Of a stretch of 64,000 bases of DNA, positions 2,537 through 64,000 are shown piece by piece. The DNA lies in the NCBI GenBank assembly GCA_029964075.1, contig CM057145.1, positions 248,001-312,000 of the forward strand. Direction: 5' to 3'. Numbering within the stretch: the stretch's first letter is position 1; each line of letters begins with the position of its first letter. The translations under genes were made by a program, and so were the position numbers. Under the pieces are notes generated by a model. The model saw only the letters and a program-made list of their open reading frames with translations. It was not told the DNA's origin and did not search any database. This stretch comes from Patiria pectinifera (Eukaryota; Echinodermata; Asteroidea; Valvatida; Asterinidae).

Positions 2537-3760
2537 TTAATCATTTCCAAGTTGGATGTTGAGACCATGTGGTTGAATAGGTCGAAGACGATTCATCCAC
2601 ATTTTCTCTCTGCTGAGGCGAACTGAGTCCTTGCGATGGCCAAGAGCTTCAATGCCCTGCAAAATCATATCAGAAATGGAGTGGTTAGGCAGGTTGAAGT
2701 GATGACCAACAGGGGTGTCTAGTTTCTTGGTGTTGACCGTTGACCGGTGGGCATAGAAACGCTTCTTGAGCGTATTCCTAATCTCACCTACATACTGCAC
2801 TCCACAGACCCTGCAATAAATGAGATATATGACATTAGAGGTGTTACAAGTGATGTTACCAATGGTTCTGTGGGTAGTGACAGAAGAGTGGCCAGAAAAG
2901 GAGTCAGACTCCTGGATATGAATCTGGCAGACAACACATCTGGAACTGCACTTGAAAGTACCATGCTGGGTGGGAGGGGATGCATCTAAGGATGGGACTT
3001 CAGCTCGAACAATCAGGTCCCGTAGATTTCGAGGACGCCTGTTAGCCAATGTGGGGCCGTTGGGGATGGCGCGGGCAAGGCGATCTGAAGTATGGAGGAT
3101 ATGATGATTGTCATTAGTGATTTTGCGAAGGGGAGGGAGACTGGGGTGAAACGTGGTAACCAAGGGAATCATGGGTTTGGCCATGGCATCAGGGGCCTTT
3201 CCCGTGAGAGCTAGATTTCTGGGGATAGCTTTAGCTCTTGCAATGGCACGATGAACTTGGCGAGAGCTGTGACCCCTGGCCACTAAGTTGTTCCTCAGTA
3301 TCTGTGTATGGCGGGAGAAATCGGAATCATTAGAACAAATTCTTCTGAGTCTGAGTGCCTGGCTAAACGCTATGCCAGTTTTGCAGTGCCTGGGGTGACA
3401 GCTGGAGGAGTGGAGGTACTGGTGGGTGTCTGTGGGTTTGGAATACAGGTCAGTGGTTAGTGAGTTGCCTTGCTTGCGGACGGTGACATCCAGAAAGTGG
3501 GTTTGGTGAGCCGAGAACTCCGATGTGAATTTGATGGTTCTGTGGAAGGAATTGATGTGGTTAGTGAAGGTGAAGAGACTGTCCTCATCACTGGTCCAGA
3601 TAAAAAAAAAAATCATCAATATATCTCCACCAGATCCAAGGGCGACATGGGGCCGAGGCAAGAATGCGTTCTTCGAGGTCACCCATGAAGAGGCAAGCCA
3701 TGGAGGGGGCCATGCGGGTGCCCATTGCAGTGCCGTGTACCTGTAGATAGTGTTCACCAA
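2537..3760 (-). pseudogene. Penelope-like element, C-terminal part with GIY-YIG endonuclease domain
   Basis: This 407-aa open frame begins out of phase with the RT frame upstream. Real element sequence in this frame starts just after the RT YIDD motif near 3,615. It holds the end of the RT thumb region, then a Cys-rich linker (FKCSSRCVVC), then from about residue 310 the GIY-YIG module: 'VIYLIYCRVCGVQYVGEI', with the downstream Arg/His (KKRFYAHR) and the Glu/Asn-containing C-terminal part. In Penelope-like elements this nuclease nicks the target DNA for target-primed reverse transcription. The domain itself looks uninterrupted. The break lies in a T-run on the coding strand (A-run at about 3,602-3,612), so replication slippage is the simplest explanation. 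Confidence 0.85.
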
Positions 3761-4502
3761 GGAAGGAAAAATTGTTCTTCGTTAGTATAAGTCTCATGAG
3801 GGTGCCAACATCACTGATGGGAGGAGTCGTGTGTCCTGCCTTGGCCAGAGCCAAGGAGCAAGCACGAACACCCTCCTCATGTGGGATGTTGGTGTACAGA
3901 GATGAGACGTCGAAAGTCCCAATGATGGCTGTGCTAGGAATCTGGTCCTTGATTCCTGCAAGCTTGCGTAGGAAGTCTGGGGTGTCGTGAATGTATGACG
4001 AAATCTGTGGGACAAGGTGTTTGAGAAAACTGTCAATAAACAGGGAGATGCGTTCCGTGGGTGAGCCATTACCGGAGATGATGGGTCTACCGGGGTTGCC
4101 AGCCTTGTGAATCTTGGGTAGAAGGTAAAATCTGGCAGTCCTACAATCACAGGGAGAAAGAAATGTGTGAGCTTTCTTGGACAACTGGTCACGTGATCGC
4201 ATATCGTCAAGTACCTGTTGTATATCTCGACAGAAAGTGCCTGTGGGGTCAGAGTCAAGGCGGGTATAGTTAGTGCGATTATCCAACTGGCGGTGGGCCT
4301 CATCAATGTACTGCTGACGATCCATGATGACCACAGCTGAACCTTTATCTGCTGGCTTGATGATGATGTCGGTGCGAGAGCGCAAGGAGTTGAGAGCCAG
4401 GCGCTCCTCTCTGGGGAGATTATCATGAGTCCTGTGGGGGAAGTTGTCTGGGTTAGTGACTTGGGAATTGATAACTTGAACGTATGTCTCTATGGCTGGC
4501 AC
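3588..4502 (-). pseudogene. Penelope-like element reverse transcriptase segment
   Basis: This 304-aa open frame contains the RT signature blocks in order: 'IIKPADKGSAVVIMD' (about residues 46-60), 'FYLLPKIHKAGNPGRPII' , 'FDVSSLYTNIPHEEG', 'GTAMGTRMAPSMACLFMG', and finally 'WWRYIDDFFF' with the catalytic YIDD. It terminates directly after YIDD because of a frame change in a homopolymer; the rest of the protein continues in another frame (see 2,537-3,760). Upstream, another frame change near 4,550 separates it from the N-terminal part. Penelope-like RTs are related to telomerase RT and use target-primed reverse transcription. Confidence 0.87.
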
Positions 4503-4544
4503 ACGATTCTTGGGGGGTACCCATGAACTCTTGACTCCAAAAGG

Positions 4545-12991: not shown

Positions 12992-15264
12992 TTACAATAT
13001 GTCGACATTTGGAAGATTTTGCTCGGCCATCCGCATCATCTTGACACGCTCTGCATAGGGACCTTTGTGTACAAGCTTAAACACGTGTAGTAGAGGCAGA
13101 TTCCTGAGATGAGCAACAAGAGTCTTCACTCCAACCAGACTGAATGCATTGAAAGAAACATCAAGCCGCACCAAACCATGCCCGGTAGGGAGGATGCTGA
13201 TCAGGTCAGGGACGTCATCATCATTCAGTCCACATGAGTGTAATTCCAACCACCCCAGGGATGGGGGAACAAGAGGGGCTACATCAGCCAGATGGCCGTG
13301 AAGGTTGGTATTTAACACATTTACGCGTTGCAACCTATCACAACCAGCCAGTGCCTTCGCTAGTCTAATGGCGTCATCAACGTGAGATTTCTTACCAATA
13401 TGCAGTGTAAGCTCTATTCGATCACGAAACCTTTCAAACATCTCTGCATTTGCCTCTATCTTCTCGTCCGCTTTTTCCGACAGGATGTAATTGACAGACA
13501 CGTGAAATCTGCTGATTGACCTGATGTTATCTATCGGTAGTATCTCCCCCAGCAGCTTCAGCCATTCATGCAATCTACCGGTGATCCATAAACAAAGGCG
13601 TACTGTAGTGTTACTATGCAGTAGTCTATCAATACCCCTAAATGACGTCAATACTTCATGCGATGAGCAGGTGACTGTTAAGTCCTTAAGTTGTACTAGT
13701 GGCTGGGGGAGACACTGCAAGTAATAGCGCATTGCTAACAGATCCTCCTGACTATAACATACCGCTTTATCTGGTCGCTCTAACTTTTCAGCCAGCTCGT
13801 CACATCCAGACTCAAAAAACATGAGGCGAGTCCGGTTCTGCTCAGTCTCACGTAATCCTTCATCATATGAGCTGACAACCCATCGTAAAACTTTACTTTG
13901 TTTTTGAACGTGATCAAGAATGAGGGCAGTAGCCGGAGACCCTGATGATATGCCGCATGCAAACCGAAGCAGATATTCCATTGCATCAACATTGTCTGCA
14001 TTGATCTGCTGCAACCTCTCATGAAACTCATCTTCGTTTGCGTGATACAAACTGGCAAAGTAGTATGCTGCGAAGTACTCTTGCATAGACTTGTGTAGGA
14101 AAGCTACTACCTTCATCTTCTTCAAGCCACTCGTCAAACTTTCTTCTTGTAGGAAACCAAATCGACACCCATCCTCCAAGGCTTTGGCATCAAATTCCTC
14201 TGAGGAGAATACGAGCCTTTCCCCCTTGGGGTCTAGTAACCCATCAAGAGCGACTCGCCCCAGCTCACTCGCGACTGAATTCATCAACGCCTCCGGATCC
14301 TCGCCGTCATTACAACGGCGACTGACTAGAACGTCAGCAAACTGTTTGTAAAGTGCCGTTAATTGATCAGGCAATTTCGATAAATTATCCCAAACTATGC
14401 ACATGAAGAGTACAAGGATTGGAATCCCGGCCAGTATGCGCAGCAATGATCTGGATGTCACGTGTGAAATTAATGATTCCCGTTTTTTGGCAGCAGCCTT
14501 TGTAGCAAAGTAGGATGTTATGTATTTCTTTGTAGTGTCGAGTGTGAAACCCAATGTTTTAACGTGGGTGTAGCGTGGGTATCCCTTGATGGCAAAGTCA
14601 ACCATGTGTGGCCGAGTTGATACTAAGACAGTACTGCGTCTTAACACCTTGTTACACAAAATGTCCTTGACCCCATAACCACCTTCCGGGGCCGGAGAAT
14701 TGAGAACATCGAATGAAATCTCATCCAATCCGTCCAATAGGAAAGCTGTATTTGCTTCGTGTTCCTCAATAACTTTCGTCAAAACTGCCTTCTCAATATT
14801 GGGTAAAATCTGGTCGCGTATGGCCTCAAGAACGCAACTTGTATTTTGCATTGTGCTCAACTTTACAGGGAACACAAGTTTGAACTTTGCCATCACGGAA
14901 TTTGGATCAGTGCTCGCATTTGCAACTCTCAATAAAAGAGTGGACTTGCCAAATCCCGCCCTTCCTGAAAGAAGGACCCTGAGCTTTCTGTCTAAAACGC
15001 CAAGCATATCTTTAAAGACTATGGTCTTTGTTCTAGCTTTATCTAAATTATGTTTCCCCTCCAGCAAACGAATGGGTTCTTGTGTAGTCTCATTACCTTC
15101 TACGTTCTGAGTGAGTTCTAGTTCAGAAAACTGGTCAATATCCAAGGTCCTGGAAGGATCCAAGGGATGTGCAGGGATGGTGCGTGTTTGGTCCTTGATG
15201 TACTCCATAACAAGCTGGTGGATATTCGTCAGATCAGTGTGGGGTGCAAATCCACCAGTAGGCC
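12992..15264 (-). CDS. exon 10: NACHT domain and LRRs of the 13-26 kb NLR
   Basis: A single large exon entered at TTCGTTTCAG|GG (phase 1) and ending at TAA. It encodes about 756 aa. Counting from Met at 15,208: Walker A GRAGFGKST at 82-90, Walker B FLLDGLDE at 156-163, the NACHT sensor-like STRPH at 197-201, and the hallmark FLHKSMQEYFAAYYF at 370-384 at the end of the winged-helix/superhelical region. Ribonuclease-inhibitor-like leucine-rich repeats occupy about 610-725 ('LGWLELHSCGLNDDDV', 'LVRLDVSFNAFSLVGV'). All key ATP-binding residues are present, so it should be a functional NTPase. ATTAAA, a poly(A)-signal variant, follows the stop within about 10 nt in both this copy and its paralogue at 59,156. 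Confidence 0.93.
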
Positions 15265-18200
15265 CTGAAACGAATTCAGAATTAGTAGCAAATGTAATGA
15301 GTTCATATCACCGGGACAAATTTCTCAATGTAGCAGTCATTCTTAAAACAACGTTAATTAATTTATCTCGAATTTGGATGACGATAAGTTAAAAAGTTGA
15401 ACGGTACCTGCTAGTTGGAGATTTTTCCAACACTATTCTATTCCTTTTGTTACCTTTTGAGCTACTTTTTAGCAATACAAAAATGTTACTATTCTATGCC
15501 CCCCCCAAAAAAAAAAAACCGAAAAAAAACCGGCTAAGTTTTGTTTCGGATTGCGTGAAAACTTTGGAATTATTTTCAGCCCGACTTTATATATAGTTCT
15601 CAGGAGGAAGACCGATTCTCGCCACCCTTTCACAATAGTAACATGGGGTTTGTGAAGTAAATTGACCGACTGACATCCGACCCGCATTACGATCTGTGTT
15701 TGAAGCAGAAGGGACAAATGGACATTTCATACTAGGTTGCGCTATTTCCCTCAAAAAAGGGGAATTTCCCAAGAAATATTATTTCCCACGAAATATATTT
15801 AACGGTTAGTTAAGGGCTCAGATGGGAGGGGGTATTGAAGGCGAAGACACGCCTTGCTGGGGATCTACCATCATTTTCCAAGACAATTTGAGAACAAATT
15901 CATACGTATTTATTAGTCGTTTAATTATCCATCCTATCATAACTTTAGTCGGCGGCTGAGCGGGGGAGTTGCAACCTCCGCCCTCTATTTATAAGCAACT
16001 GTACAGTAGCCGACAGACGCTCGAAATTCCGACTAAAACATATTGGTGGGGGTGCAAATCTCATGATCATGCACTATTTTTTTCGTAAAAATGAATCGTA
16101 CTTTTTGAAAAATCGTTAGTAGAGAAAAGGTCGATTACATTGAAAAACACGGATGATACATCTTTCAAATCATCACTCTATGAAGATGTTGCTTATTGAT
16201 TTATTGTGACCTTCAAGGAGGGTAGTCCATTTCAGTTACACAACTGCTTTTCAAAGGAGCAGTTTTTGTTTGTCGAAAATCAGGTGAATTTTGTCTTGGA
16301 GCACTTAAAAAAGTCTTCTTTTTTTTCTGTTTTTTGCAAAAGTTTAACAAAAACGGTGCATCAAACTAAGACAAGAAGCTTTGTGATATTATTGTGTAGT
16401 GAATTTACACATTTCTGTGAATTACATTTCTATTTGCTCTACGTATACAAATGTATAATAAACAATTACAGTTTTGATGGAACGCGGAAAGAATACATGA
16501 TTGGCAATCAAACAACAATGCGGCAAAGAATGTCGTTATCATGAAAAAGAAAATAAAAACCTGCTGATAAAGAAAAGGTTAAATAATAAACAAGATCTAT
16601 GTCTGGTCGAGGAACAGAACATAGATTTTCCGCATGACTAGTTATTCCCGAGCGAGAGTGTGATCAAAAATAATGATGTACACGCTATATAGTGAGTGTA
16701 TGTCCCACAAAGGCCATCAGCCTCGGTCCAAAATTTTGGCACCCGGTATCAAATGAGGGGAGTAATCGTCACAGCGATTTTTGGCAAGGTATACACCTCC
16801 AGAGTTGGAAAATATGTGATAGCATTGCAGCGGTGGCAGCTTTTTAGGTGTTATCACCTTTTTTTTTCCAAAATGGCCATCAAAATGCTTGTTGCCACTC
16901 TAGGGGTGGTATACCTTGTGTTTGCGCACTATAATCATTTATGCCCTGATTTGATACCGACCAAATCCCAAGCTGATGGCCTAACATACCACAAGGCCGA
17001 ATGCTCTAAACGCACTGCATTATTCCATGTTCCCGAGCGCGATAACGAATGTATCGTTAGGAAAACTCGACACACAATATTATAGTTGAAACTATAGAGG
17101 ATAAAAATTATCTTCTTGCGGTAAGGCCCAAAAAATAGTCGGTCTTTGGTCAGCGCACGAGACGATTTTAATCATGCGCGTCAACCTTTGTTTTTTCTTC
17201 AAATTGAACGCGGTAGCTACAACAGCGCCCTCTATTGCCGCACCTCCTCAAAGGTTTTGTTCCAAGGAATGGGGAAATTGCAAATTAATGGAGGGTACCA
17301 AGGCAAATTATGGAGGACACCAATGTATAGGAGGACACAAAAAGCAAAACAAAAATAGTACCCACCTTGTCTGTGCAATCCAAGCTTGAAAAAAAAAGGC
17401 CAAAAAGAGAAGAAAAAAACGCGTCGCCGCATCAACTCCTGAACTTTGGTCTGACCTGAGACCGATTTTTGTTTTTGGCCTACCCAATACAAAAACTCAA
17501 AATAAGTTAAATTTGGTATCTTCTATTCGAATTGAAAAAAAATTAATCGGCTTTGCCCTAGAGATCACTTTGAGGATTATTCAATTTTCCCCAACAGCCC
17601 ATTACTCCATTCACTAATGCATCGATGCAAACTAATACGAGTGACGTAGCTTTTGTTTCAGATGAGGTATACATAGGGAGCGCTATTTTGAATGGGTACA
17701 CAAACTGGGATTACTGACCTGTAAATCGACACCCATAGAGCTCAGTGATATTTACGCGCACTTCCAATTTCGTTTTATACCTACAACTCTCCAAGAGTTA
17801 GGACACCCATCAAATTAAAGAATTTCAAGTTTATTTCATCATCTGTAAAAATCTGAAAATTTCATCCAAAGATTATCACCTCTTAAGTAATTACGCGGCC
17901 CATCGCCAATTTGAAAAACTATGCCTTCGCTCTATTACAGAAAGAAAACCCAACAAACCACAATTATTATAGGACCCCATGTCATGATCCGAATTTCACG
18001 GAGATACGAGCTCGCAGTTTATGCACTGCATGCACCCATATTGCTTACACAACCTCAAGTTCATCCATATTAGAACAAATTACAAGACTTTAACCTCTAT
18101 AAATAGCCCCCCCCATATTGTGTCCACAATATACTGCAATGCAGTGGCCCACAGTTGTACCAAAAGAAAATTGGTGATTCTCTAGCTCGCGAAACTGGAA

Positions 18201-21200
18201 ATAAGTAAATGTTAACACCACTCCCATGTCCCTTCCGCCTAAAAGGTACATTAACACTTGATATAAGATATCAAACTACTTTATTGTGTCGAACAGGCGC
18301 GGTTCTAAGCAGGGGGGCGGGGAGGGCTGTAACCCCCAAAAAAAATTGTGTCTAGCCCCCCCCCAAAAAAAAAATTCCGTAAAAAAAATTGTATTAGCAA
18401 AAAGAAGGATTGTGATGTACATGCGAACGGTCACCCCCTATAGAAATAGTCGTGCATTAGTTAATATAGTGTGAATGATTTTAGGATTTTATTGGCGCTC
18501 CGGCATTGAAAATATGGCATGAGCCCCCCCCCCCCCCCCCCCCCCTTCCCCCCACCTATTGATTTTTGTAGGCCTTAAAGTGTCTGGAAAAAAATAACCG
18601 GTCTACATTTCAGCACGCCTCCCTGATAAAAAAAATTCTTGATCCACCGTGCTAGCCCCCCCAAAATATTGGTTCTAAAACCGCGCCTGGTGTCGAACAA
18701 GAATATATTTACTAGGTCCCTCCGACGGCGAGTTGTAAGTGACATTAACTCCTCTTGAACCAACAAAAATAGGGCTCTGGCTACTGCTGATCGTGCCGAT
18801 GCGTACTATGCTGGCTCTACCTCCTAGTTGGTAATCTACAATCAAAAGCAATAATAAAAGTATCCTTCAATCCAATTCAATTCAATTCAATAATGGTTTA
18901 TTAAAAGCACAAAACTGAATTGTAAATGCGCACGTCATACCTCAGTAAAACATAAACATAATGTTTTACCTTTTAAAGCGAGATTTCACTATGAAGGTTA
19001 ACGAAGATGACCCGTTTAACAAAGGCCAAGAAAAAAATGCTATAATGAGAACAGTGAAGAACAATTACTTTGTACGTACAAATTGATGCGTCCTCTGGTG
19101 CTCCAACGCCATGACTTGTAGATGGCCTGGTGGAAGTACCAGCATCATCAGCAAGCTGAGTGCCAACCTCCTCCCTTGATGTAACACCTGATGTTTGGGC
19201 GATCGGACTTGTAGATGGCCTGGTGGAAGTACCAGCATCATCAGCAGGCTGAGAGCCAACCTCCTCCCTTGATGTAACTCCAGATGTTTGGGGGATCTGA
19301 CTTGTAGACGGCCTGGTGGAAGTACCAGCATCATCAGCAGGCTGAGAGCCAACCTCCTCTCTTGATGTAACTCCAGATGTTTGGGGGATCTGACTTGTAG
19401 ACGGCCTGGTGGAAGTACCAGCATCATCAGCAGGCTGGGTGCCAACCTCCTCCCTTGGTGTAACTCCAGATGTTTGGGGGATCAGACTTGTAGACGGCCC
19501 GGTGGCAGCACTAGCATCATCAGCGGCCTGTCGTGATGTCTTGATGGTCCTGTCAGAATCTTGTTGATGTGAAGACTTTCGCTTCATTGTGACATTCTGC
19601 TCTTTATAACGAGTGCCAACGGGCTGTCTTGATTTCTTGTGACGTCCTAGTAAATTGTAGTACACAATATCTTTATTAACAACCATGGCTAGGCAAACAA
19701 TATGATTTATTGATCCCCTTTTTTTTTAATACGGGCTTTCAAAAGGACTTTGCCTGATTGTGTTTTTTCTTTTTACTTTTTAACTGAGGTTTGCTCGCTA
19801 GTGATGTTTGAAGACAATTCGTCACCAGTTTCACGAAGAGACTGGCATGTGGATTTTGAAGAAAAACCGTTTTCGAGATAATCGCAAGAGAAGTTTCTCC
19901 GTTTTTAAAACTGCAAAAACTACTAATTTTCAACAACTTTATGCAATAAGAAAACCTTGACGTAATTCTTTGATAGGTAAACGTTAATTTGAACCCAGTG
20001 ATTATATTTCATATAGTGGTAAAAAAAAAGCAAAAATTAATTACTAAAGACGCGAGTCCCTTCGTGAAAACGAAAATGTCACCTGTTCAATGTATTTTTC
20101 CCAAAGGAATAAAAAAACGACTAGATCGGCAGTGCGTACAGACGCGCGTTCTACCATGGGCGGCGCCATTTTTCAGCGCGTGGGGAAAAGGTTGCGTTAT
20201 GCGCATCTTTAACTTCGTAGGCTTGCATGGAAAGATACGTTTTTATGTCCGTAAAAGTAATATTTTTGACCTGTAGTAGTTATTTCCTCAACCATATTCA
20301 AAATGGGTAATCAAGCTGCATAATCATTTCGAAGTTTGGTCCATTTTATTTCTCGTATTTATTTCCCTTTTTAAAATGCTGGTGCGTGTTGCTAAAAAAC
20401 ACATTGCATCTAGTTGTTTAAGTGCTATTTTCTTCATTTTTAAGGGACAACACCCAGAACATTATTTTCTCCATTGTCCCTCCTCAGGACATTTCATCCG
20501 CCGTTATCAGATACACTTTTTACTGTTGGATAATGGGGGACTCACGCACCTCCCCAGCCCTTCACCAAAAAAATGGAACAAAAACATTTGTGTTATTGTG
20601 CACTCCTCTAGTGGAGTATCCAGCATCTCAAAATCTTCAAGAAGGCGCAAGAATCTCACAACGTTGAAAAAAAGTAATGGGTAGGGCACATGAAATAAAC
20701 TTGAGGAGTTAATTAGATTTTTTTTTAATTGTTCGTACGGTTTACCCATCTCGTTTGCCTATGAGTAGTAGTGGTTTTGTTTATTGCTCGTTGCAACTTT
20801 TACCGTCCCGATTTCGCTTCTATCAACTTTCGCGATTTCGCTTTTAAGATCGTCATGATGTTGCAATCTTCCAATGCCCCCCTCCCAGCCTGGTCACGCC
20901 ACCACTCTTAGCGTCAAATTGAGGTCAAATATCCCTGACGCTTTTTCGAAATATGTACAACAACACACCCATCATCCGTACCCCTCAACACATCCTCCAA
21001 AAAAGGTTCGAATCCGCCAATGCATTGATAAGACTGGAACATTATAAGGTCCGCTCATAAGTCCAACGCCTCATAGGTCCGACGCCTCATTATTCCGACG
21101 CCTCCTAGGTCCGACGCCTCATAGCTCCGACGCATTGTAGGTCCGACAAATTTAACGCCTCGTTTTTCTGACGTCGGACTTATGAGGCTTCGGACTAATG

Positions 21201-24200
21201 AGGTGTGGCACCTGGTCGGAATAAAACAATCTTATGCCTCATAAATCCGACGCCTCATAAGTCCGAATTTGCGGAAGCAAAATAGTGAAAAAATCGAAAT
21301 CGAAAAAAAAAAAAAAAAAAAAAATTCTAACATGCCCGTCCCTTCGTGAAACCAGTGATGAATTGTTGCGACGCTTCTTGAAATCGCTTTTTTGGACGAA
21401 AGAGGTTCCAGGGTCATTGTGTTTCAAAGGTGATATATTCTTTGAACGGATTAAGCAGTTTTTTTCTTTATTTCGAAATAGCTTATGCAATTGGCTTTCC
21501 AATCATTGTTATTTGTGGTGCTACATATTTGTTTTAAATATGAAATATCATATTGGGGGGTTTGGTTCCGTGAACATTGATTAACATTGTGTACATGCAG
21601 CTTGAGGTGTCATACTATGTGAACTTGATTGCAATAAACGAAGATGAAAAGCAAAGTGCACGAACCGCACGATAGACCGGATTTGAAAATCGCTAAATAC
21701 AGATTTCTGCGTTTGATATAGACACACTTGACTGTCATTTTGTGTGGGAAAACATAATTTATGTACCAGTTATATGTACATTTAGTAGTCATATGGAAAT
21801 TGAATTAGAATTTTCAATCACTTCGGTTTATCACGCAACACGTATGGTTCATTAAAACATTGCGCATTGATGGTTACAACACTTAAACAGACTTACCTTG
21901 AAGGAACGTGACGATGTCATTTCTGTCGATCCTGGCCAATGCTCCACACAACACGTCCATCTGACCTCCAATGGTGGGCTGCCGTCGTCGCCATGCTACG
22001 AGCATCTGAAATGTCTGATTGTAAACATTGCTTGGGCTGTCGGCCTCGAAGGTTGAGATGTCTGCGGATGTGAAGCCAAGGTGTATAGCAAGATCCTTCC
22101 AATCGTGACCAAGCCTCCTAGCGACATCGGAGAGAGTCGGCTCTGATATTTCCGCTACAAGAACAAAAAAAATATATTACTCCAAACTGTATTCATAAAT
22201 GCGTGGTAAGAGTCCAAAATACAACGTAGCTTACCCTAGACCTATTTCTCGGGTAAAAAAAACCCGACACTTTCCGGGTCATATGGCCAGGCAAAACGGC
22301 ATTTTTACCCAGAAAATGGTCAGTCCAATTAGGACCCGGAGAATGGGTCTGTCCAGCCAGGAAGTTTCAATAGTTTCAATAGTGTGAAAACAAGGATGAC
22401 GAAGCATCTGTTATAACATGAGAATAGTGAAGAACTAAGACTCTGTACGTACAACTTGAGGCGTAATATTAACCTAAAACTTGGTCTTTTTGTTAATCTG
22501 GGGATCTTCCTGAAACCTGTCACCTGTTGGACGCCTTAAGGCAAAATGTCAAGGTTGTAATGATTAAAAAAAACAGAAATAATTTTGAGCATACACATGC
22601 ACTCATGAACAAATTGGCATCAAGTTGAGACTGTTGGTACATGTATGGGCAGCTAGGTGGGTTGTTCTTATGATTGTTAGTCACTTTCGGACCCCATACG
22701 CTAAATGTCAAACAGAACATCACTCCATCCAAGTTACATTAAACTCCATCAAATTTAGTTGACAATAAAAGTTTGAAATATATATAAACAATGACCTCTA
22801 ATGACTAATACATGACTTTTGAGCTCAGTAATTCGATGGAGAATTGTGTCTTCCCACCCAAGTGTCACTGCATCCAAGTTTCATCCAAATCAAACTTAAC
22901 TTACACTGTATCGTACATATGGGTCCTAAATTCTGTATGACCGTAGGGTCATACAGAATTTAGACTGGTTAGTGTCTCCCAAAACTTCGTCCAGGCGACA
23001 AAAAAACGTATGCTCAAGCATGATTATAGTTTGATAGGCGGATGTGGCATCCCAAGATATATTATTTTACTTTACCTTTTGGTCCACCGCCCAGTAGGCC
23101 ATCAGTACACAGGCGGAGTGAGATATTCTCGTCCTGTTGTATTCCACAGTCAGAAAGTGTCAGCAAGTTACAAAGCTGAAACAAATCAATTTTTTAATGT
23201 AAGATCTTCATAAAATACTCTCTTAAACAGAGTTTTTTTTTAAAGACGAAAGTCTGGTGGTTAGGATTTAAAAATATTTAAGGAAACCTTTTTTTTTCAT
23301 TGGTGAATTTTAAAATTGAGGCTATTTTAAATCGGTGGGTCTTAAAGCAACCATTTCCCCCAGTAATCATTTATTTATTATTTCCTTAACTTTAGTGCAA
23401 AGACATAATTGTACCGATATCAGAGCAGCGTCTGTACGCAAATGATAGTGCTGCTTCTGATCCACGGACTCTTTTATAATGAAATATTGATTGATACTTT
23501 ACAACATGGCAACTTTGAAAACTGTAGAGCCATTTTTACCTCAAAGTTACGAAAGTTTCTTCGGATAAACAATCGTTGTTGTTGAGGATGGACACTGATT
23601 ATCTCGCTTAATATCTCTTTTAAGCACCAGACGGATGCCACTGGATCCAATTGGAAACAAAGCGTTCTGGGCTTATGTGTCAGGTGTAACCCGATGAAGA
23701 CTTGCACATGACTGAAACTGTCAGAAAAAAGTTCGGCATGTTAATGCACTTTTTTAGGTTGAATTGGCAATTACAATATAGTAATGAAGGTAAAGACCAT
23801 GGACCATTATTGTAGCCATTTTTGTACACAATTATTTAAGTGAGGAAATATTGGGTTTTTTTTTCCAAACAAAAAGTTTAGCTCTTTACAAAATAAAATG
23901 TGATGCCTAGGTAATTCTTCAAACACAATGTGCAGTACAAATAGCAGCATTTAATCACGTTTTACCAGATGCGCCGAGGTTTGTCTAGATCACAAATGTC
24001 TTACTTTTTCTGTGTCTTTTCCTTGGTTGATGCCGCCTTGCTTTCTATGTTCTCCTTGTCAACTCCTGCATCTTGACGCCTGTCTGGTTCGGGTCCAGCT
24101 GCTTCGTCTCTTGATTCATTTGTTACTAATACAAGTAGGAAAACAGAGTGCATCATTATATTTCTAATTTCTTTTTTTTTAGTAGCAGGTTTCGTAATGG

Positions 24201-25803
24201 CCTATTTGCTGTCAAATGCGTGAGGTGTGATTTAAAAAATTGGTCCTCTCTTCTAGCGCACCTGGTACATTTTGGGCCAAATCAGTCAGCCCGATGGCCT
24301 CCAATGCTCGTCTCAGCTGCTGAGCTGCTTCGTTGCGATCTGTCGTCTTTTCCCACCAAGTGAGTAGCATGTGACGGCCAGCTTCATTGTTGCCTTCGTT
24401 GCTGGATTGGATGTCTGCAATTTCCGCTTCCTCATATCCTAGATGTTCAGCTAGTTCCTTCCATGATGATTCACTTTTCGAAGACAAGTCCTTGAGGTAC
24501 TCATCATCAATGTTGGCTTTGTCTACCAAAAAATGATTAACTTTAGTGAAACATTCTCAAATGCGTCCACCACCGTATAAGTTACCAACTTAAAGAAATT
24601 ATATCATTACCTAAAGCTAAAACCAAAAAAATACACCTTTTATCTTAATTAATATATCTAATCAAGATTCAGTTTATTTACTTGAAAATTCTATTCCCAC
24701 ATTCTGTAGTTTACCTTTCGTTACACTGTCATCATTTGGACCATCTACTGAAAGATGGAGAGAGATGATTTCTTCCTTGCCGACACCATTCTCCTCAAGT
24801 GTCAGTAGGTCACAGAGCTACCAAAGTGAATAGTGTTTGAAAATAAGTTAAACGATCAGAGGGAAACACAGTGGATTTTCGTTATTTGTGAATTGAAATT
24901 ATGTTCGTTTAACATTTAGTATGGAGAGATTACTTATAATATGTTTGTGTATTTAACGTGTGTTTATCATCAATAAAAAATAAATTGATTAAAACATGAA
25001 AATGCGCGATTTTAAGTTTTATATTACCATTTGGAAAATCGCATAACACCAATATCTAAGATGGGATATTTCAAATTATCTGTATTGATATTAAAGTATA
25101 CCAACCTGGACGTTTCTCCTGATGTACAGACGCTGATATCGTGCCTCAACGCCAATTCTCTTCTGGATTGTTTCCTTGAGAGATGTGACTGATGTCTCGG
25201 GATGGAGTTCAAAGTAAAGTGTCTTGGGGTTTTTTTTGAGAGGAGTCCGGACAAAGAGATGCAGTTTCTGTTTTACGTCTTTGGTAATACTGTGAAAATA
25301 TGGGGAAAACACTGTGTAGTTTTAGAAATAAGTTATTAAACAATATAACGAGATCAATGAAAAGTTCATTTTGAAGCTATAATCAGAGTGCCGCCCATTG
25401 TCACTGTCATTATTCTAATAAAAGTGCATTTTATCGTTAAAATCGTTTAAACTTTTAAACAAATTGGAAATAATCAAACATCAAACAATCCTTCAAATAC
25501 AGCTACAATGCCCATATAGCAATCATTTGTCTTAATGTATAAACGTATATATGTCATAGCTGTTTACCTCTGACTTTCTTGTTTATACCTCCAATGATTT
25601 TGAATCCATCGTTTCGATGGTCTCCTCTGTGCACATCTATCATCAGAAGATGTTTTCCTGTAATGCAGTCCAGACAAGAAAGCTTGTTTCCTCCTTGGTT
25701 TGACTTTAGTCTTCCTGCTGATGAGTTTGGTGTTGGAGTGATTGTACACGACGGCTGTTGCCTTAATGTAGGCATCCAACTGCTGAACTGTCTTTTGCGG
25801 CAT
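12992..25803 (-). CDS. NLR-type receptor gene: [ubiquitin-like + Death] x2 - NACHT - LRR (10 coding exons)
   Basis: Gene model built from the sequence: exons 25,803-25,568; 25,289-25,106; 24,817-24,715; 24,522-24,262; 24,125-24,005; 23,711-23,540; 23,175-23,076; 22,154-21,897; 19,646 (or 19,688)-19,080; 15,264-12,992. Every junction has AG/GT borders and the phases agree across all nine introns; the total is divisible by three and has no internal stop (about 1,424 aa, or 1,438 with the longer exon 9). Domains in order: basic N-terminus, UBL1, Death1, hydrophilic linker, UBL2, Death2, Thr/Ser/Pro-rich repeat linker, NACHT, LRR. By family knowledge this is an intracellular pattern-recognition or cell-death receptor: LRRs sense, NACHT oligomerises with ATP, and Death domains recruit adaptors. 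The job of the UBLs is unknown. Exon 1 and the exon 9 acceptor are the weak points; separate genes cannot be fully excluded without RNA data. Confidence 0.75.
15265..17121. other. intron 9, proximal part: no gene seen
   Basis: AT-rich intronic DNA between the NACHT exon and exon 9. It contains short homopolymers (15,499-15,530), the G-rich 'gaaggcgaagacacgcc' motif shared with 105-175 and 61,750, and, from 16,706 on, DNA missing from copy 2. No further exon with correct phase was found. Confidence 0.5.
17124..17480. mobile_element. MITE with AGGCC...GGCCT ends and TA duplication
   Basis: The left end AGGCCCAAAAAATAGTCGG is followed by 'tctttggtcagcgcac'; the right end, inverted, gives AGGCCAAAAACAAAAATCGG followed by 'tctcaggtcaga'. 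It is flanked by TA at 17,122-17,123 and 17,481-17,482. It is the same family as 38,467-38,827, with matching interior ('tttaatcatgcgcgtcaa', 'cagcgccctctatt', 'aatagtacccaccttgtctg'). It is absent from copy 2 of the segmental duplication, as part of a larger indel. Confidence 0.85.
18294..18689. mobile_element. hAT-type MITE with 8-bp target duplication
   Basis: A 396-bp element with ends CAGGCGCGGTTCTAA and TTCTAAAACCGCGCCTG, flanked by GTGTCGAA at 18,286-18,293 and 18,690-18,697. The corresponding place in copy 2 (about 63,900-63,920) has a single 'tgtatcgaa' and no insert, a natural empty site. The insertion is therefore younger than the segmental duplication. The interior is rich in G-, C- and A-runs and does not encode protein. 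Confidence 0.93.
19080..19646 (-). CDS. exon 9: Thr/Ser/Pro-rich linker with 31-residue repeats
   Basis: Encodes a basic start (RHKKSRQP..., MKRKSSHQQ) followed by about five repeats of a roughly 31-residue unit of the type ADDAGTSTRPSTS-QIPQTSG-VTSREEVG. This is a hydrophilic, probably disordered spacer between Death2 and NACHT. The donor ATTT|GTACGT is phase 1 and matches the phase-1 NACHT exon. Two acceptors fit the phase: TTTACTAG at 19,647 (567-bp exon) or the more pyrimidine-rich TTTGCCTAG at 19,689 (609-bp exon). The in-frame ATG at 19,587 has a fair context, so a separate shorter transcript starting here is also possible. Low sequence complexity makes family assignment impossible. Confidence 0.65.
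19130..19520 (-). repeat. 93-bp coding minisatellite in exon 9
   Basis: About four and a half tandem units of 93 bp, each containing 'cttgtagacggcctggtgg' and 'agtaccagcatcatcagc' on the plus strand. The central units are nearly identical and the edge units more diverged, the pattern expected of ongoing unequal exchange. 93 is divisible by three, so copy-number change keeps the reading frame. Confidence 0.9.
21046..21265. repeat. foldback cluster of the TCCGACGCCTCATA motif
   Basis: At least six plus-orientation copies of a roughly 14-15 bp motif (GTCCGACGCCTCATA, with variants) occupy 21,055-21,130. Inverted copies follow around 21,170-21,205 (CGTCGGACTTATGAGG), then two more direct copies at 21,235-21,265. 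Direct and inverted arms could pair into a long imperfect stem. It lies in intron 8 of the NLR gene. Confidence 0.8.
21897..22154 (-). CDS. exon 8: Death domain 2
   Basis: A 258-bp exon, phase 1 on both sides, with acceptor TGTTCTTGTAG and donor CAAG|GTAAGT. It encodes 86 residues that form one complete Death domain: 'LSDVARRLGHDWKDLAIHLG', 'FTSADISTFEAD', 'YNQTFQMLVAWRRRQP', 'MDVLCGALARIDRNDIVTFL'. The six-helix pattern and the conserved W in helix 2 (HDWKDLA) and in helix 4 (MLVAWRRR) are visible. Death domains mediate homotypic assembly with adaptors and kinases or caspase platforms. Its symmetric phase makes it a self-contained, shufflable module. Confidence 0.92.
22405..22475 (-). pseudogene. 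relic of a linker-exon 3' end plus intron start
   Basis: This stretch resembles 19,027-19,095, the end of exon 9 and the start of its intron: both share, on the plus strand, 'agtgaagaac', 'gtacgtaca' and a following 'ttga.gcgt'. The donor GTACGT is intact but the frame upstream is closed by stops. It lies between UBL2 and Death2, where a linker occurs in module 1, so it is probably a decayed linker copy. Confidence 0.5.
22926..22963. repeat. 17-bp-arm perfect hairpin
   Basis: CTAAATTCTGTATGACC and GGTCATACAGAATTTAG flank a 4-nt loop (GTAG) inside the intron between exons 7 and 8. I found no second copy in the window. On RNA it would form a stable stem within the pre-mRNA; whether it has a function is unknown. 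Confidence 0.8.
23076..23175 (-). CDS. exon 7: ubiquitin-like domain 2, C-terminal half
   Basis: A 100-bp exon with acceptor TTTGTTTCAG (phase 0) and donor AAAAG|GTAAAG (phase 1). It encodes LCNLLTLSDCGIQQDENISL and then RLCTDG, which match the last helix-turn and final beta strand of the ubiquitin fold (compare the DYNIQKESTLHLVLRL region of ubiquitin). The tail after the last strand is Gly-rich (LLGGGPK) but in-frame with the Death2 exon, so it is not a free diGly terminus. The layout is identical to UBL1b (exon 3). Confidence 0.82.
23540..23711 (-). CDS. exon 6: ubiquitin-like domain 2, N-terminal half
   Basis: A 172-bp exon entering with one base (phase 2) after TGACAGTTTCAG and leaving at phase 0 (TTTGAG|GTAAAA). 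It encodes 'VQVFIGLHLTHKPRTLCFQL', a helix 'SVWCLKEILSEIISVHP' and 'QQQRLFIRRNF', lining up with the beta-hairpin, helix 1 and the QQRL-I strand of ubiquitin. It is diverged from UBL1a, but the exon borders fall at the same structural positions. Confidence 0.82.
24005..24125 (-). CDS. exon 5: hydrophilic linker between Death1 and UBL2
   Basis: A 121-bp exon (phase 1 in, phase 2 out), acceptor TTGTATTAG, donor AAAAA|GTAAGA. It encodes about 40 highly charged residues (TNESRDEAAGPEPDRRQDAG, then a Lys/Glu/Ser-rich part), probably disordered. It is not recognisable as a domain. Both phases fit its neighbours exactly, which is the main support. Confidence 0.72.
24262..24522 (-). CDS. exon 4: Death domain 1
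   Basis: A 261-bp exon, phase 1 on both sides, acceptor TTTTTTGGTAG, donor ACCAG|GTGCGC. It encodes a full Death domain of 87 residues: 'YLKDLSSKSESSWKELAEHL', 'GYEEAEIADIQSSN', 'AGRHMLLTWWEKT', 'EAAQQLRRALEAIGLTDLAQ'. The conserved Trp of helix 2 (SSWKELA) and of helix 4 (LLTWWEK) are present. It is more diverged from Death2 than a recent duplicate would be, so the module duplication is old. Confidence 0.93.
24715..24817 (-). CDS. exon 3: ubiquitin-like domain 1, C-terminal half
   Basis: A 103-bp exon (phase 0 in, phase 1 out), acceptor CTTTGGTAG, donor GAAAG|GTAAAC. It encodes LCDLLTLEENGVGKEEIISL and then HLSVDG, the counterpart of the last helix-turn and beta strand of ubiquitin. There is no terminal Gly-Gly and the chain continues into Death1, so it is an integral (non-conjugated) ubiquitin-like domain. 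Confidence 0.83.
25106..25289 (-). CDS. exon 2: ubiquitin-like domain 1, N-terminal half
   Basis: A 184-bp exon (phase 2 in, phase 0 out), acceptor ATATTTTCACAG, donor TCCAG|GTTGGT. It encodes 'QKLHLFVRTPL', 'KTLYFELHPETSVTSLKETI' and 'QKRIGVEARYQRLYIRRN', which follow ubiquitin's strand 1-strand 2-helix 1-strand 3 order (compare MQIFVKTL...ENVKAKIQ...QQRLIF). The Lys positions used for ubiquitin chains are not all kept. Confidence 0.87.
25568..25803 (-). CDS. exon 1: putative start and basic N-terminal region
   Basis: ATG at 25,803 in an adequate context (ACCAAGATGCC), open to a donor AGAG|GTAAAC at 25,568, leaving phase 2 as required by exon 2. It encodes about 78 residues rich in Lys, Arg and Gln (MPQKTVQQLDAYIKATAVV...), with no domain I recognise. 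A TATA/initiator pair lies just upstream, giving a 5' leader of about 32 nt. Another frame (ATG at 25,775) is also open across the exon but leaves the wrong phase for exon 2. The start is the least certain part of the gene. Confidence 0.5.
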
Positions 25804-40566: not shown

Positions 40567-41346
40567 TCAAAAAAACAAACGTTCCGGACGCTTCCCTCGC
40601 GTACTCCTGCTTGAGCAACGTCTTGGCACTGGTTTTGGGATGGGAGAGTCTGGTCTCGGTGTTATGGCTGGGCTTGGAACTTCAGGTTGAGATGGGTGGA
40701 GACTCGTCTCCATGGGGGGACGTTCCGGGACAGGGGACACTGGTTGAATCGGTGGGGAAGGAAGTCTCCTCCGAGGTTGCTCTCCTGGCGCTTCTGCCAA
40801 TACTGCCTGCGGTGGTGTTGGCAATATTCTGCATCCTGTTTGCTTGGAGGCGGGTGTTGTCACTAGCCAACCTCTCGCACGAAAGACCGGGGCTTCTGGA
40901 CTCAGGGTGTTGGCACATGAGGGATCCGATGAGTCTGGGTTGGGAGGTGGGTCTGCTGAAGGAGAACTTGCTGGTACTGGGGCTTGTTTGAAATGACACA
41001 CAGACAATGCATTCCGATGAAGAACCTTCTGCTTCTTTGTCCCTTCCTGCTCTACTTCATAGACGGGGACGTCTGAATTAGGTTGCCGCAAGACTACATA
41101 TGGGGTTGATTCCCAACGGTCCTGTATTTTCGACCTCCCCTTCAGACCTCTCAGCCGGACAAGGACTCTTTCTCCTGGAAGTAAGGGCAGATGTTTTGCC
41201 TTCTTATCAAAAGCCTTCTTCTGGGCAGCAGTGGCTGAATCAAGGGTCTTTCTGGCGATGCGATGAGAGAACTGTAGGCGATGGTGATGTTTGGACACCC
41301 AGTCGTCCGAGGTCACACTGCCTTCAGTTTCAGAGGGGCCAATCAT
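40567..41346 (-). pseudogene. Gypsy copy A: integrase C-terminal module and Pro-rich tail
   Basis: A 259-aa frame with a GPY/F-like integrase C-terminal block ('LLPGERVLVRLRGLKGRSKI', then 'DRWESTPYVVLRQ') followed by about 130 residues rich in Pro and Ser. It is cut off from the rest of Pol by one missing base near 41,357 (copy B has GGG where A has GG) and by a shared frame change near 41,395. There is no chromodomain. The proline-rich tail has no function I can name. Confidence 0.85.
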
Positions 41347-41380
41347 CGAGTCAACAGGAGTCTCCCATGCCTACCAAACA

Positions 41381-43993
41381 TTAGATAGTGTGGAGTGTAC
41401 CCAGTGTGTGACAGGTGTTGTTATAACTAAAGCAGAGTTCTGGGAGGTAGTCTGCCCACTGTCGCTTTTTCTCAACCTCCATAGTACCTATGAGATTAAG
41501 CAGGGTCCGGTTGAACCTCTCACACAACCCATTGCCCTCTGGATGATACGGGGTTGTATGGCTTCTCGTAGTACCGTATAACTTGCACAGCTCCTTGATT
41601 GTGTTTGATTCAAAGTTGGCACCTTGATCCGAATGTATTCTGGTGGGCATCCCATAATGAACTATAAACTTTCCCCACAGAGCCTTCGCTGTGGTTGTCG
41701 CAGTCTGGTCACAGGTGGGTACGGCTACAGTCATCTTGGTAAAATGGTCAGTGATGACCAACACGTGCTCGTAGCCACCTGACGATCGCTCTAAGGTCAA
41801 GAAATCCAGGGCCACTAGCTCTAGAGGGGCAGTGGTCTTGATGGAGACAAGAGGGGCCCTGGCTTTCTCTCCTTGCTTCCTCAAAGAACATCTTTGACAG
41901 GCAGCACACCAATCCTGGACTTGAGCAGACATCTTCGGCCAAAAATACCTCTGCCGAATTGCCTCCTGAGTGCGGTCAGCTCCCATGTGACCGGCACGAT
42001 CATGCAGCTCCCGCAAGACATCCTCATGTAGACTGTAAGGAAGAACAACTTGTCTCCTCTCCTCGAGCTGCTTCGGATCTTGTACCACCCGGTAGAGAAT
42101 GCCATTGGAAACTTGAAGCTTCTTCCACTCACTCAGGATCTGCTTGGACACTGGACTAAGACTTACACGTTCCCCTGTACTCGGACGTCTGTCTTGTACT
42201 ATGTACTGCAGTACCGGGCCAATATTGGGGTCGCCATGTTGCAATGCGGACAACTCATCTGAACTTAAACCCGGCATAGCTTCAATGACATGCAAACTCA
42301 GTGGAGAGGTAGGGACACTATTAGGGCTGAGACCATTGAAGCAAGCCTTCACAACTGCAACCGTAACTTGACCTTCCCACTCGTCAGTCTCATGGTCTTC
42401 CTCTATCTCAGGGTGTGGAAGTCTAGAAAGGGCATCAGCATTATCGTTATTCTTCCCAGGACGGTACTTGATGTCGAACTGAAAGTTTGCCAGCTGGGCA
42501 ATCCAACGCTGTTCTACTGCTCGTAGTTGGGCTGTATTCAAGTGTACTAGTGGATTGTGGTCTGTGAACACTGTAAATTTCCCTCCCATCAGATACTCCT
42601 TGAACTTATCTGTTATAGCCCACTTCAAGGCAAGGAGCTCCAACTTGAATGCACTGTAGTAGGCGTCATTGCGTTCGGTCTTGCGCAGCCCTCTGCTGGC
42701 ATAGGCAATGACCCTTTCCTTCCCATCCTGACTCTGAGATAGGACGGCTCCAAGGCCTTGGTTGCTTGCATCGGTGTACAACAGGAACGGTTTTGTGTAG
42801 TCGGGGTAGGCAAGTACTGGTGGGGACATCAGGCATTGCCGGAGCTTGTCAAATGCCTGTTGGCATTCTGGGGTCCATTGGAAGGGGAGACGTTGTTGGG
42901 GTTTCTTGCCCTTCTTAGGTTGACCAGTCAGGGCAAATAGTGGTTGTGCAATTTTGGAGAAATCCTTTACAAAACGCCTGTAGTATCCGACAAAGCCAAG
43001 GAACTGTCTCACTTCCTTTGGGGTTGACGGAGTTGGCCAGGTCTCCAACGCGAGACATTTCTCCGGGTCGGTTTGGATACCATTTTCTGATGCCACATGA
43101 CCAAGAAAACTGATGGACTTCTTCAGTAGATGACATTTCGATGGTTTGGCTTTCAGTCCATGTTTGGCGAGTCGTGATAAAACCATATCGAGCCTCTGTA
43201 GATGTGATGTAAAATCGGGGGAGAAGACAATAATGTCATCAAGATAGAACATCAGGGTTTCGCAGGATTGGTCTCCAAAGCATCGCTCCATGAACCGTTG
43301 AAATGTTGCTGGTGCATTAGTGAGGCCAAAGGGCATTCTATTGAATTCAAATAGACCCATCGGTGTGGTGAACGCCGTCTTAGACTGATCATCTGGGTCC
43401 ATAGCTATCTGCCAATAGCCACTCACAAGATCGATAGTGGAGAAATACTTTGCACCATGCAGGGCATCAAGGGACTCGTCAATTCTGGGAAGGGGGTATG
43501 CATCGGGGATAGTGACCAAATTGAGCCGTCGGTAATCCACGCATAGGCGAAGTCCACCGCACTTTTTCCGAACTAGCACTATTGGGGACGCCCATGGACT
43601 TGTACTTTCCTGTATCACCCCTTTCCCTAGCAGTGTTGTCAGGTGGTCCTTCACTTCTTGATAGAGATGTGGGGGAATTCTGCGATAACGGTCCTTGATG
43701 GGTCTATCCGTTGTGGTGGGGATGGTGTGTTTGACAGTCGTTGTCTTACCGAAGTCATCATCACTTTTAGAGAAGACCTCTCTATGCTGATGAAGAAGAG
43801 AGCTGAGTTGCTCAAACTCAGCTGTGGATAACGTTTCTCTGTCAACATTCACTGGTATCGGGAGTTCCTCGACAGGGGTTATCCTGGGGTATGCATCTGG
43901 CTCCCCTTCAAGACGCACCTCTACTTCATGAAGTCCAAGTTCTATTAACTCCAGTGGTGGATGGCTGATCTTGGAGGACTTCAGTGACATCAC
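41381..43993 (-). pseudogene. Gypsy copy A: reverse transcriptase - RNase H - integrase
   Basis: An 870-aa open frame. RT core: 'PLPRIDESLDAL', 'FSTIDLVSGYWQIAMDPDD', 'FNRMPFGLTNAPATFQRFM', 'FYLDDIIVFS' (catalytic YLDD). RNase H: 'LLYTDASNQGLGAVLS', 'KLELLALKWAI', 'VFTDHNPL'. Integrase: HHCC finger ('LHDRAGHMGADRTQ ... CAACQRC') and the D, D, E residues in 'ALDFL', 'HSDQGANFE' and 'HPEGNGLCERFN'. It is separated from the protease part by one extra base near 43,956. It ends prematurely (…HTLGTLHTI) at a frame change also present in copy B. Confidence 0.93.
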
Positions 43994-45745: not shown

Positions 45746-45776
45746 TGTGGTGTCGGTTATCCCACTTCTGACACGT
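45746..45776 (-). other. primer binding site, copy A (tRNA-Leu-like)
   Basis: Between the 5' LTR edge and gag, the plus strand reads ATCCCACTTCTGACAC then GT. This is the 3' part of metazoan tRNA-Leu (CAG-type, ...ATCCCACTTCTGACA-CCA), with the last two residues mismatched. On the coding strand the PBS is therefore complementary to about 16 nt of tRNA-Leu. The same sequence flanks LTR3 (52,557-52,587). Confidence 0.65.
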
Positions 45777-52556: not shown

Positions 52557-52587
52557 TGTGGTGTCGGTTATCCCACTTCTGACACGT

Positions 52588-63276: not shown

Positions 63277-64000
63277 AATTACAGTTTAGACGATCGCGGA
63301 AAGAAGGAAAGGAATGTCGACATCATGCAAAGGACAAAATAACATGCTGACAAAAAAAAGGTTGAATAAACTAAATCTTTGCCTGTTCGATGAACAGAAC
63401 ATAGGGCTTCCCGCATTATTAGTTATCCCGCGAGCGTGAGTGGAACACAGAATAATGTAGTCCGACTCAGGCCGAGTGGTATGTGGGACACACGCAAGAA
63501 AACTTGACGTACTGTATAGTTGAACTATGATCCGAATTTTACAGAAATACGAGATTTCAGTCTTCACACCCTCAAGCTCGTGGCCCACAAAATGTTCTAA
63601 TAGCAACGATTGAGGGCATACAAATTGTGTTTGGCCTTCGTAAGTAATTTTGGGCATATTTACAGGTCTGCATCCATAGAGGAAAAAATTACAAGACTTT
63701 AACGACTACAAATAGCGCCCTCGTATTATTTGCCCCATATACTGCAAAGCAATGGAATACAGTTGTACCAAAGAAATTGGTGGCTCTCTAATTGGCGGAA
63801 CTGGAAGTTCTTCCATATTAATACCAGCCTCCACCTGTCCTTTCCTCCTCTAAAAACTACATTCACACTTTATCTAAGATATCAAACTTCTTTAGGCTAC
63901 TGTATCGAAAAAAAATATATTTACCTTGTCCTTCCGACGGCGAGGGGTAAGTGACATGAACTCCACTTGTACCAACAATGATTGGGATCTGGCTACCGCT

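What the first reader, a model, noticed from the sequence alone, without database searches (positions are those of the whole stretch)
12992..25803. Receptor with two ubiquitin-like/Death modules ahead of NACHT-LRR
Seen: ten minus-strand exons with correct AG/GT borders, nine phase-compatible junctions, total length divisible by three, and no internal stops, coding UBL-Death-linker-UBL-Death-repeat linker-NACHT-LRR. Known: Death-NACHT-LRR receptors are expanded in several marine invertebrates; I do not recall a described receptor with this duplicated UBL-Death arrangement. Inference: the integral UBLs could bring ubiquitin-reading or proteasomal partners, or act as oligomerisation surfaces next to the Death domains, giving an NLR with built-in ubiquitin-type signalling.
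Basis: partly seen in the sequence, partly recalled or inferred. Interest (0 to 1): 0.88.

Follow-up and report, generated by a model that had tools for sequence, protein, structure and literature searches.

The report
Sea-star immune receptor with ubiquitin-like domains
This stretch of sea-star DNA carries one of a cluster of repeated immune-receptor genes whose front end holds two ubiquitin-like and two death domains, and the second ubiquitin-like domain keeps a ubiquitin-style glycine tail of unknown purpose.

Summary
Ten minus-strand exons splice in frame into UBL-Death-UBL-Death-linker-NACHT-LRR. An eleventh exon was missed (18713-18835; present in 5 of 6 units, splice sites intact in those 5). 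The DNA is from a sea star, Patiria or close. The unit recurs in the same order and strand; a P. miniata model matches junctions 1-8 without indels. Of 17 chosen sea-star homologues, 13 carry UBL, Death and NACHT, from Patiria, Acanthaster and Asterias, so databases already hold this layout, unnamed or as 'NLRC5-like'. A homologue's NACHT-LRR folds like NLRC4/NOD2. Pooled pN/pS over 10 copies is 0.43-0.57 in NACHT and 1.5-1.9 in the last LRR windows, as in a diversifying sensor. New here: the NACHT-proximal UBL ends in L-x-G-G in 28 of 29 proteins, the first UBL in 0 of 22 (many are paralogues). Ubiquitin's I44/V70 face is not conserved, which weakens the ubiquitin-reading idea; a cleavable or conjugable ubiquitin-type module is possible but untested. 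No transcript evidence was available.

The parts
25568..25803 (-). Exon 1: start codon and conserved basic N-terminal motif (YDHS..K...RK.K....R..AF), low-confidence (disordered-looking) in the model of P0001
   Evidence: similar N-termini in Acanthaster and Asterias proteins
25106..25289 (-). Exon 2: first part of UBL1
   Evidence: (PF00240 3.1e-7 with exon 3)
24715..24817 (-). Exon 3: end of UBL1; no Gly-Gly tail
24262..24522 (-). Exon 4: Death domain 1
   Evidence: PF00531 1.5e-13
24005..24125 (-). Exon 5: acidic linker
23540..23717 (-). Exon 6: first part of UBL2
   Evidence: fold in homologue P0001
23076..23175 (-). Exon 7: end of UBL2; lowest pN/pS of the seven small exons tested (0.23)
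23086..23097 (-). L-L-G-G tail of UBL2 (in TDGLLGGGPK), aligned with LRGG of ubiquitin
21897..22154 (-). Exon 8: Death domain 2
   Evidence: PF00531 6e-14; ankyrin, PIDD, CRADD, RIPK1 death domains
19080..19646 (-). Exon 9: linker with repeats (..TSTRPSTSQIPQTSGVTSREEVGSQPADDAG..)
   Evidence: P0009 joins exon 8 to it
18713..18835 (-).
   Evidence: units U1-U5 with AG..GT and no stop; none found in U6; similar stretch before NACHT in P0022
12992..15264 (-). Exon 10: NACHT, helical domains, short LRR, stop
   Evidence: fold in homologue P0013
59168..61482 (-). NACHT-LRR exon of the next unit (U4); its open frame runs to 59156
63925..64000 (-). Exon 9b of unit U4, cut by the window end; its exons 1-8 lie at C17:317834-321739

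Best explanation
This is most likely one gene of a tandemly repeated NLR family found here only in sea stars. Shown by computation: exon structure, domain order, recurrence of the unit, database models of the same kind in three sea-star genera, NLR-type fold of a close homologue, purifying pressure on most N-terminal exons, amino-acid diversification in the LRRs. Inferred: a ligand bound by the variable LRRs releases the NACHT, which oligomerises; the clustered Death domains (nearest solved relatives of Death 2: ankyrin, PIDD, CRADD, RIPK1) nucleate a death-fold platform; the UBL before each Death domain is a built-in ubiquitin-type module that sets which partners or enzymes join. UBL2, with its L-x-G-G tail directly before Death 2, is more likely to meet enzymes of the ubiquitin type (proteases or E1) than ubiquitin-reading domains.
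For: Gene model and domains. Junctions 1-8 in P0014; exon 8 to 9 in P0009; a 9b-like stretch before NACHT in P0022. Repeated units. UBL, Death and NACHT in one predicted protein in 13 of 17 scanned, best UBL and Death stretches N-terminal to NACHT in 13 of 13. Folds of homologues. Selection. Tail.
Against: No transcript seen. The 17 were chosen by me, mostly for carrying NACHT; in 5 of the 13 the ubiquitin score is under Pfam's cut-off (P0018, P0022, P0025, P0035, P0037). Other sea-star rows lack NACHT in their precomputed domains (P0017, P0023, P0024, P0033, P0036). At least six of the 13 have another NACHT subfamily: P0016, P0018, P0019, P0021, P0022 and P0025 are 21-27% identical to P0013. 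The only model found that joins UBL-Death to the window's own NACHT subfamily is P0014, which skips the middle of NACHT and has a third Death domain in place of 9b. Some P. miniata models stop after UBL-Death, and P0013 starts inside a Death exon. U2 has lost exon 8 and part of NACHT. pN/pS values are pooled counts without a test. Ligand, oligomerisation and partners are inferred.
Confidence: 0.6

Rival explanations
1. Two neighbouring genes that duplicate together: a UBL-Death-UBL-Death adaptor and a NACHT-LRR receptor.
For: Introns of 2.2 kb (8 to 9) and 3.4 kb (9b to 10); P. miniata models with UBL-Death only (P0002-P0004, P0006, P0007) and with a Death fragment plus NACHT only (P0013); a stand-alone NACHT reading from the Met about 19 residues into exon 10 is not excluded, and in U4 the open frame has a Met further upstream.
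Against: The NACHT exon follows an AG in 12 of 12 aligned copies, and 4 of 12 carry a 1-nt indel just before it that would break a frame; compatible phases through all junctions; 13 of 17 scanned homologues join the parts in one predicted protein, though several with another NACHT subfamily.
Confidence: 0.15
2. One gene, several products: short UBL-Death transcripts act as adaptors or decoys beside the full-length receptor (not exclusive with the best explanation).
For: P0002 ends RTNFLNHTSRI, the same residues that the window encodes when its exon 4 donor is read through; P0003, P0006 and P0007 end at about exon 5.
Against: These are models of other paralogues, taken to be automated; no expression data seen.
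Confidence: 0.3
3. The GLLGGG tail is only a flexible linker after UBL2; the UBLs are ordinary protein-binding domains (not exclusive with the best explanation).
For: Glycine runs suit linkers; the tail is internal and, by my count on the alignment, 1 to 3 residues longer than in ubiquitin; a Pro follows within two residues in many copies.
Against: 28 of 29 NACHT-proximal UBLs have L-x-G-G and 0 of 22 first UBLs; the residue between Leu and Gly varies (L, R, P); exon 7 has the lowest pN/pS of those tested.
Confidence: 0.5
4. A decaying or non-functional copy.
For: Neighbour U2 is damaged.
Against: The window copy has no internal stop and canonical splice sites and Walker-like motifs GRAGFGKST and LLDGLDE; pooled over 10 copies, pN/pS is under 1 in NACHT.
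Confidence: 0.05

Closest known systems
Animal NLRs (NLRC4, NOD2, NLRP3)
   Same: NACHT, helical domains and LRR fold (Foldseek E 9.8e-26 to NLRC4 with homologue P0013); death-fold N-terminus
   Different: UBL-Death twice in place of CARD or PYD; short LRR in this subfamily
Acanthaster planci 'NLRC5-like' P0021 and P0027, Asterias amurensis P0034 and P0035 (database models)
   Same: UBL and Death ahead of NACHT-LRR, L-x-G-G tail, similar N-terminal motif in P0021, P0027 and P0034
   Different: P0021 belongs to another NACHT subfamily (23% to P0013); Asterias has one UBL and three Death stretches; longer LRRs
OASL tandem ubiquitin-like domains (chicken OASL, 7sbi)
   Different: UBLs at the C-terminus of an OAS-type protein; NACHT, Death and LRR are not part of it (recalled)
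FUBI/FAU and polyubiquitin precursors
   Same: UBL followed by L-R-G-G or M-L-G-G and, in precursors, a downstream part (sequences recalled, aligned)
   Different: Precursors release a free modifier (recalled); release is not shown here and the tail is longer
TRADD-N/Death-like proteins of marine animals (PMC8195603; passages and section 11 read)
   Same: Lineage-specific expansions joining death-fold, polyubiquitin and other immune domains
   Different: No UBL-Death-NACHT-LRR in the parts read; figures and supplements not seen

Membership tests
NLR (NACHT-LRR receptor) | NACHT domain with Walker A and B | tested here: met
   PF05729 9e-17; GRAGFGKST and LLDGLDE in exon 10 by eye
NLR (NACHT-LRR receptor) | C-terminal LRRs | tested here: met
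   No Pfam LRR match in the window protein; beta/alpha repeats in the model of P0013 (76% identical to the window over 746 residues) and matches to NLRC4/NOD2
NLR (NACHT-LRR receptor) | N-terminal death-fold domain in the same polypeptide | tested here: inconclusive
   Two Death domains, joined to NACHT by gene structure and by homologous models; no transcript
Ubiquitin-like domain | Beta-grasp fold | tested here: met
Ubiquitin-like domain | Hydrophobic I44/V70 face used by many ubiquitin readers | tested here: not met
   By eye: F, Y, I, H or L at I44; mostly Arg, also Cys, His, Thr at V70
Conjugable (type I) UBL | L-x-G-G at the end of the fold | tested here: met
   UBL2 type 28 of 29; UBL1 type 0 of 22
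Conjugable (type I) UBL | Exposure of the Gly-Gly by a protease and transfer by E1 | not testable with these tools
   Needs biochemistry
FIIND NLRs (NLRP1, CARD8) | FIIND domain | tested here: not met
   No FIIND among Pfam matches of the window protein pieces at E up to 1; one sub-threshold match within the LRRs of P0034, read as chance

The most novel reading that the evidence does not exclude
UBL2 is an integrated ubiquitin-type decoy or fuse: a deubiquitinase-type protease (host or invader) cuts after the conserved L-x-G-G, freeing Death-NACHT-LRR from the UBL-Death-UBL front end (or producing a conjugable front end), so that the receptor senses ubiquitin-protease activity as NLRP1 and CARD8 sense viral proteases (recalled), while the LRRs sense other ligands.
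Probability: 0.17. Interest if true: 0.88.

Novelty: new variant of a known kind. Interest (0 to 1): 0.62.

Why it matters
Echinoderms have large NLR repertoires whose signalling is little known (recalled). A receptor class that fuses ubiquitin-type and Death modules to NACHT-LRR gives a direct handle on how sea-star NLRs signal, and the L-x-G-G tail makes a sharp yes/no test of whether an NLR is controlled by ubiquitin-type cleavage or conjugation. The class is seen in two sea-star orders (Valvatida and Forcipulatida) and its LRRs appear to diversify, which suggests a real role in immunity.

Tried and rejected
Rejected: a chance string of open frames (repeated units, homologues). Rejected: that the window's gene stands alone of its kind. 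Demoted: UBLs read through the I44 face. Considered for exon 9b: a RHIM-like or other amyloid signalling motif. In 5 of 5 copies a G-T-I/V stretch is followed by P-I/V and a hydrophobic run ending in G, but the RHIM tetrad I/V-Q-I/V-G (recalled) is in none of the 5, and pN/pS is 1.2; left open. Papers listed on that topic were not opened.

The alignment kept only rows with L.GG, so its invariant Leu and Gly columns arise by construction; only the unfiltered count is used. Left out there: P0008 and P0024 (partial UBL), P0010 and the five UBL1-only models. pN/pS of exon 6 includes U2, whose first 17 bases do not match; that of exon 8 includes both U6 copies. In one search, three of ten loci (L012, L016, L017) gave no match on the strand searched; L012 and L017 are U6 and U4 themselves.

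Literature: searches listed seven different papers in all; I opened only PMC8195603 of these. Titles and abstract starts of the others did not describe a UBL-Death-NACHT receptor. Open-access papers only. Not searched: PADLOC, PHROGs, NCBIfam, Rfam, phage, plasmid, viral and prokaryote collections (animal DNA). The whole-genome count of UBL loci could not be made (searches unanswered). In one search the listed rows cover UBL2 only; UBL1 and Death were not tested there.

On re-checking I changed three things: the species is no longer called 'not P. miniata' (see report), the other NACHT subfamily of several homologues is told, and for that reason the best explanation went from 0.62 to 0.60 and the two-gene rival from 0.13 to 0.15.

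Full report
What was checked. The ten exons lie at 12992-25803 on the minus strand with AG/GT borders; phases agree at nine junctions, the sum is 4281 nt and the only stop is the last codon. The exon 9 donor must be placed at 19080 for the frame to hold (a first attempt four bases off broke it). Between exons 9 and 10 a further exon of 123 nt (18713-18835) has AG and GT borders and phase 1-1; with it the product has 1467 residues. Pfam finds two ubiquitin stretches, two Death stretches and a NACHT domain.

Source. Relatives of the UBL-Death part are sea-star proteins, 13 of 13 rows, 13 of 14 rows are, the last being unnamed. The window is C17:248001-312000 of an unnamed 613.5 Mb genome. The species is not settled. 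Among the scored matches of P. miniata protein P0014 the identity reaches 83% (40 of 1222 candidates scored), and C17 is 16.39 Mb where the P. miniata record with this cluster is 17.54 Mb, so it is another assembly; but one exon of P0009 matches at 99%. It is Patiria or a near relative.

Is it one gene? P0014 (P. miniata LOC119725418) aligns without an indel at junctions 1-8; left of junction 1 only 3 of 10 residues are identical. It has a third Death domain where the window has 9b, and lacks the middle of NACHT. P0009 joins exon 8 to the exon 9 linker; P0022 carries a 9b-like stretch between linker and NACHT; P0013 joins a Death exon to the NACHT exon. In 234 kb of C17 around the window plus 30 kb near 2.6 Mb the order exon 1-UBL1-Death1-exon 5-UBL2-Death2-linker-9b-NACHT recurs on one strand: U1, the window (U3) and U4 with the full order, U2 without Death 2 and with a damaged NACHT, U5 from the linker on, U6 with an extra Death exon and no 9b found. 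Outside the window, 36 of 36 acceptors and 35 of 35 donors that could be called are canonical; sites where the match stopped short are not counted, and an acceptor extrapolated for U2 exon 6 is not AG. The NACHT exon follows an AG in 12 of 12 aligned copies; in 4 of 12 a 1-nt indel lies just upstream. Mean identity per 15-base bin is 0.71-0.88 upstream and 0.76-0.94 downstream, a modest step. No transcript evidence was within reach; the protein models are taken to be automated.

How wide is it? A profile search returned 40 proteins at E up to 1e-10 among 7984 scored candidates. By precomputed domains, the rows with both UBL and NACHT are from Patiria, Acanthaster and Asterias; the vertebrate and unnamed rows have NACHT without UBL. 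I scanned 17 sea-star proteins with Pfam, chosen mostly because they carry NACHT: 13 have ubiquitin, Death and NACHT at E up to 1e-3, five of them with a ubiquitin score under the curated cut-off (P0018, P0022, P0025, P0035, P0037); P0014 lacks NACHT; P0029, P0031 and P0032 lack Death. In 13 of 13 the best UBL and Death stretches are N-terminal to NACHT. P0021 and P0027 of Acanthaster have two ubiquitin and two Death stretches; P0034 and P0035 of Asterias one and three. Sea-star rows not scanned include some without NACHT (P0017, P0023, P0024, P0033, P0036). Six of the 13 were compared with the window-type NACHT protein P0013 and are 21-27% identical: the N-terminal module is shared by more than one NACHT subfamily, and for the window's own subfamily P0014 is the only joined model found. 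Word-based searching limits reach, so absence elsewhere is not shown. Patiria and Acanthaster are Valvatida, Asterias is Forcipulatida.

Selection. Pooled pairwise pN/pS among units: exon 2 0.63, exon 3 0.31, exon 4 0.39, exon 6 0.59, exon 7 0.23, exon 8 0.61, exon 9b 1.2. In 10 NACHT-LRR copies (of 12 looked at; L009 and L014 dropped; U2 and U5 not put in) it is 0.43-0.57 over residues 1-441, 0.77-1.01 over 442-630, and 1.46 and 1.92 in the last two windows, the LRR part. These are counts without a test and with possible gene conversion; the trend is that of a receptor whose sensing end diversifies.

The tail. In one search, 37 sea-star proteins were searched with a small UBL profile; 34 have a UBL. 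In 17 with two, the last has L-x-G-G in 17 of 17 and the first in 0 of 17. In 17 with one, 11 have it; the six without are five short models whose single UBL follows exon 1 and which I class as UBL1 (P0002, P0003, P0004, P0006, P0007), and P0010, whose residues there read like the same codons in another frame (inferred, DNA not seen). So the NACHT-proximal type has it in 28 of 29 and the first type in 0 of 22. Many are paralogues, so these are not independent events; but Asterias (GLLGGAP) and the single-UBL forms P0037 and P0038 share it. In the window's genome 5 of 5 units with exon 7 keep GLLGGGPK. Aligned with recalled human ubiquitin and FUBI, the motif falls on LRGG, with by my count one to three extra residues before it, while the I44 and V70 positions are not conserved. 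This favours enzymes acting on a UBL tail over readers of the UBL face; it does not show cleavage or conjugation.

Precedent. PMC8764230 (parts of abstract and passages) reports that the tandem UBLs of chicken OASL carry LRLRGG, conjugate to themselves and are cut to some degree by 7 of 14 nairovirus OTUs tested. PMC8195603 (passages and section 11) describes marine-animal expansions that fuse death-like and TRADD-N domains with polyubiquitin and others. Seven term searches listed no description of a UBL-Death-NACHT-LRR receptor; of the seven papers listed I opened one. That NLRP1 and CARD8 are cut by viral proteases is recalled.

Verdict. The object is a member of a sea-star NLR family that databases hold without a function: a new variant of a known kind. 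The most interesting open point is the ubiquitin-style tail in front of the Death-NACHT core.

Noticed in passing
window 40567-45844 and 47367-52655 (-): Two very similar (by eye) Ty3/gypsy-type retroelement copies in tandem; Pfam on the first finds gag-type PNMA and zinc knuckle, aspartyl protease, RT, RNase H and integrase. The second is split over more frames. LTRs were not looked for.
   Followed up: partly
window 2537-4544 (-): Reverse transcriptase frame followed by a frame with a sub-threshold GIY-YIG match, suggestive of a Penelope-like element.
   Followed up: partly
window 25568-25803; N-termini of P0021, P0034, P0037, P0038: A conserved basic N-terminal motif (YDHS..K...RK.K....R..AF), low-confidence in the model of P0001, shared by Patiria, Acanthaster and Asterias proteins; no Pfam match in the window copy.
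   Followed up: partly
C17:194541-198917 (unit U1): The linker lies in a 1567-residue open frame of repeats.
   Followed up: no
window 18713-18835: Exon 9b encodes a short motif kept in five units but fast-evolving; a loosely similar stretch precedes NACHT in Acanthaster P0025 (by eye).
   Followed up: partly
window 24212-24261: Reading through the exon 4 donor gives a tail whose last 11 residues equal the annotated end of P. miniata model P0002.
   Followed up: no
own genome (G000): 101 NACHT matches from 439 candidates, 101 scored, many on C17, C16, C10, C21 and C5.
   Followed up: no
P0012 (Acanthaster): Double-UBL protein whose second L-x-G-G tail is followed by what looks like a transmembrane segment (by eye).
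   Followed up: no
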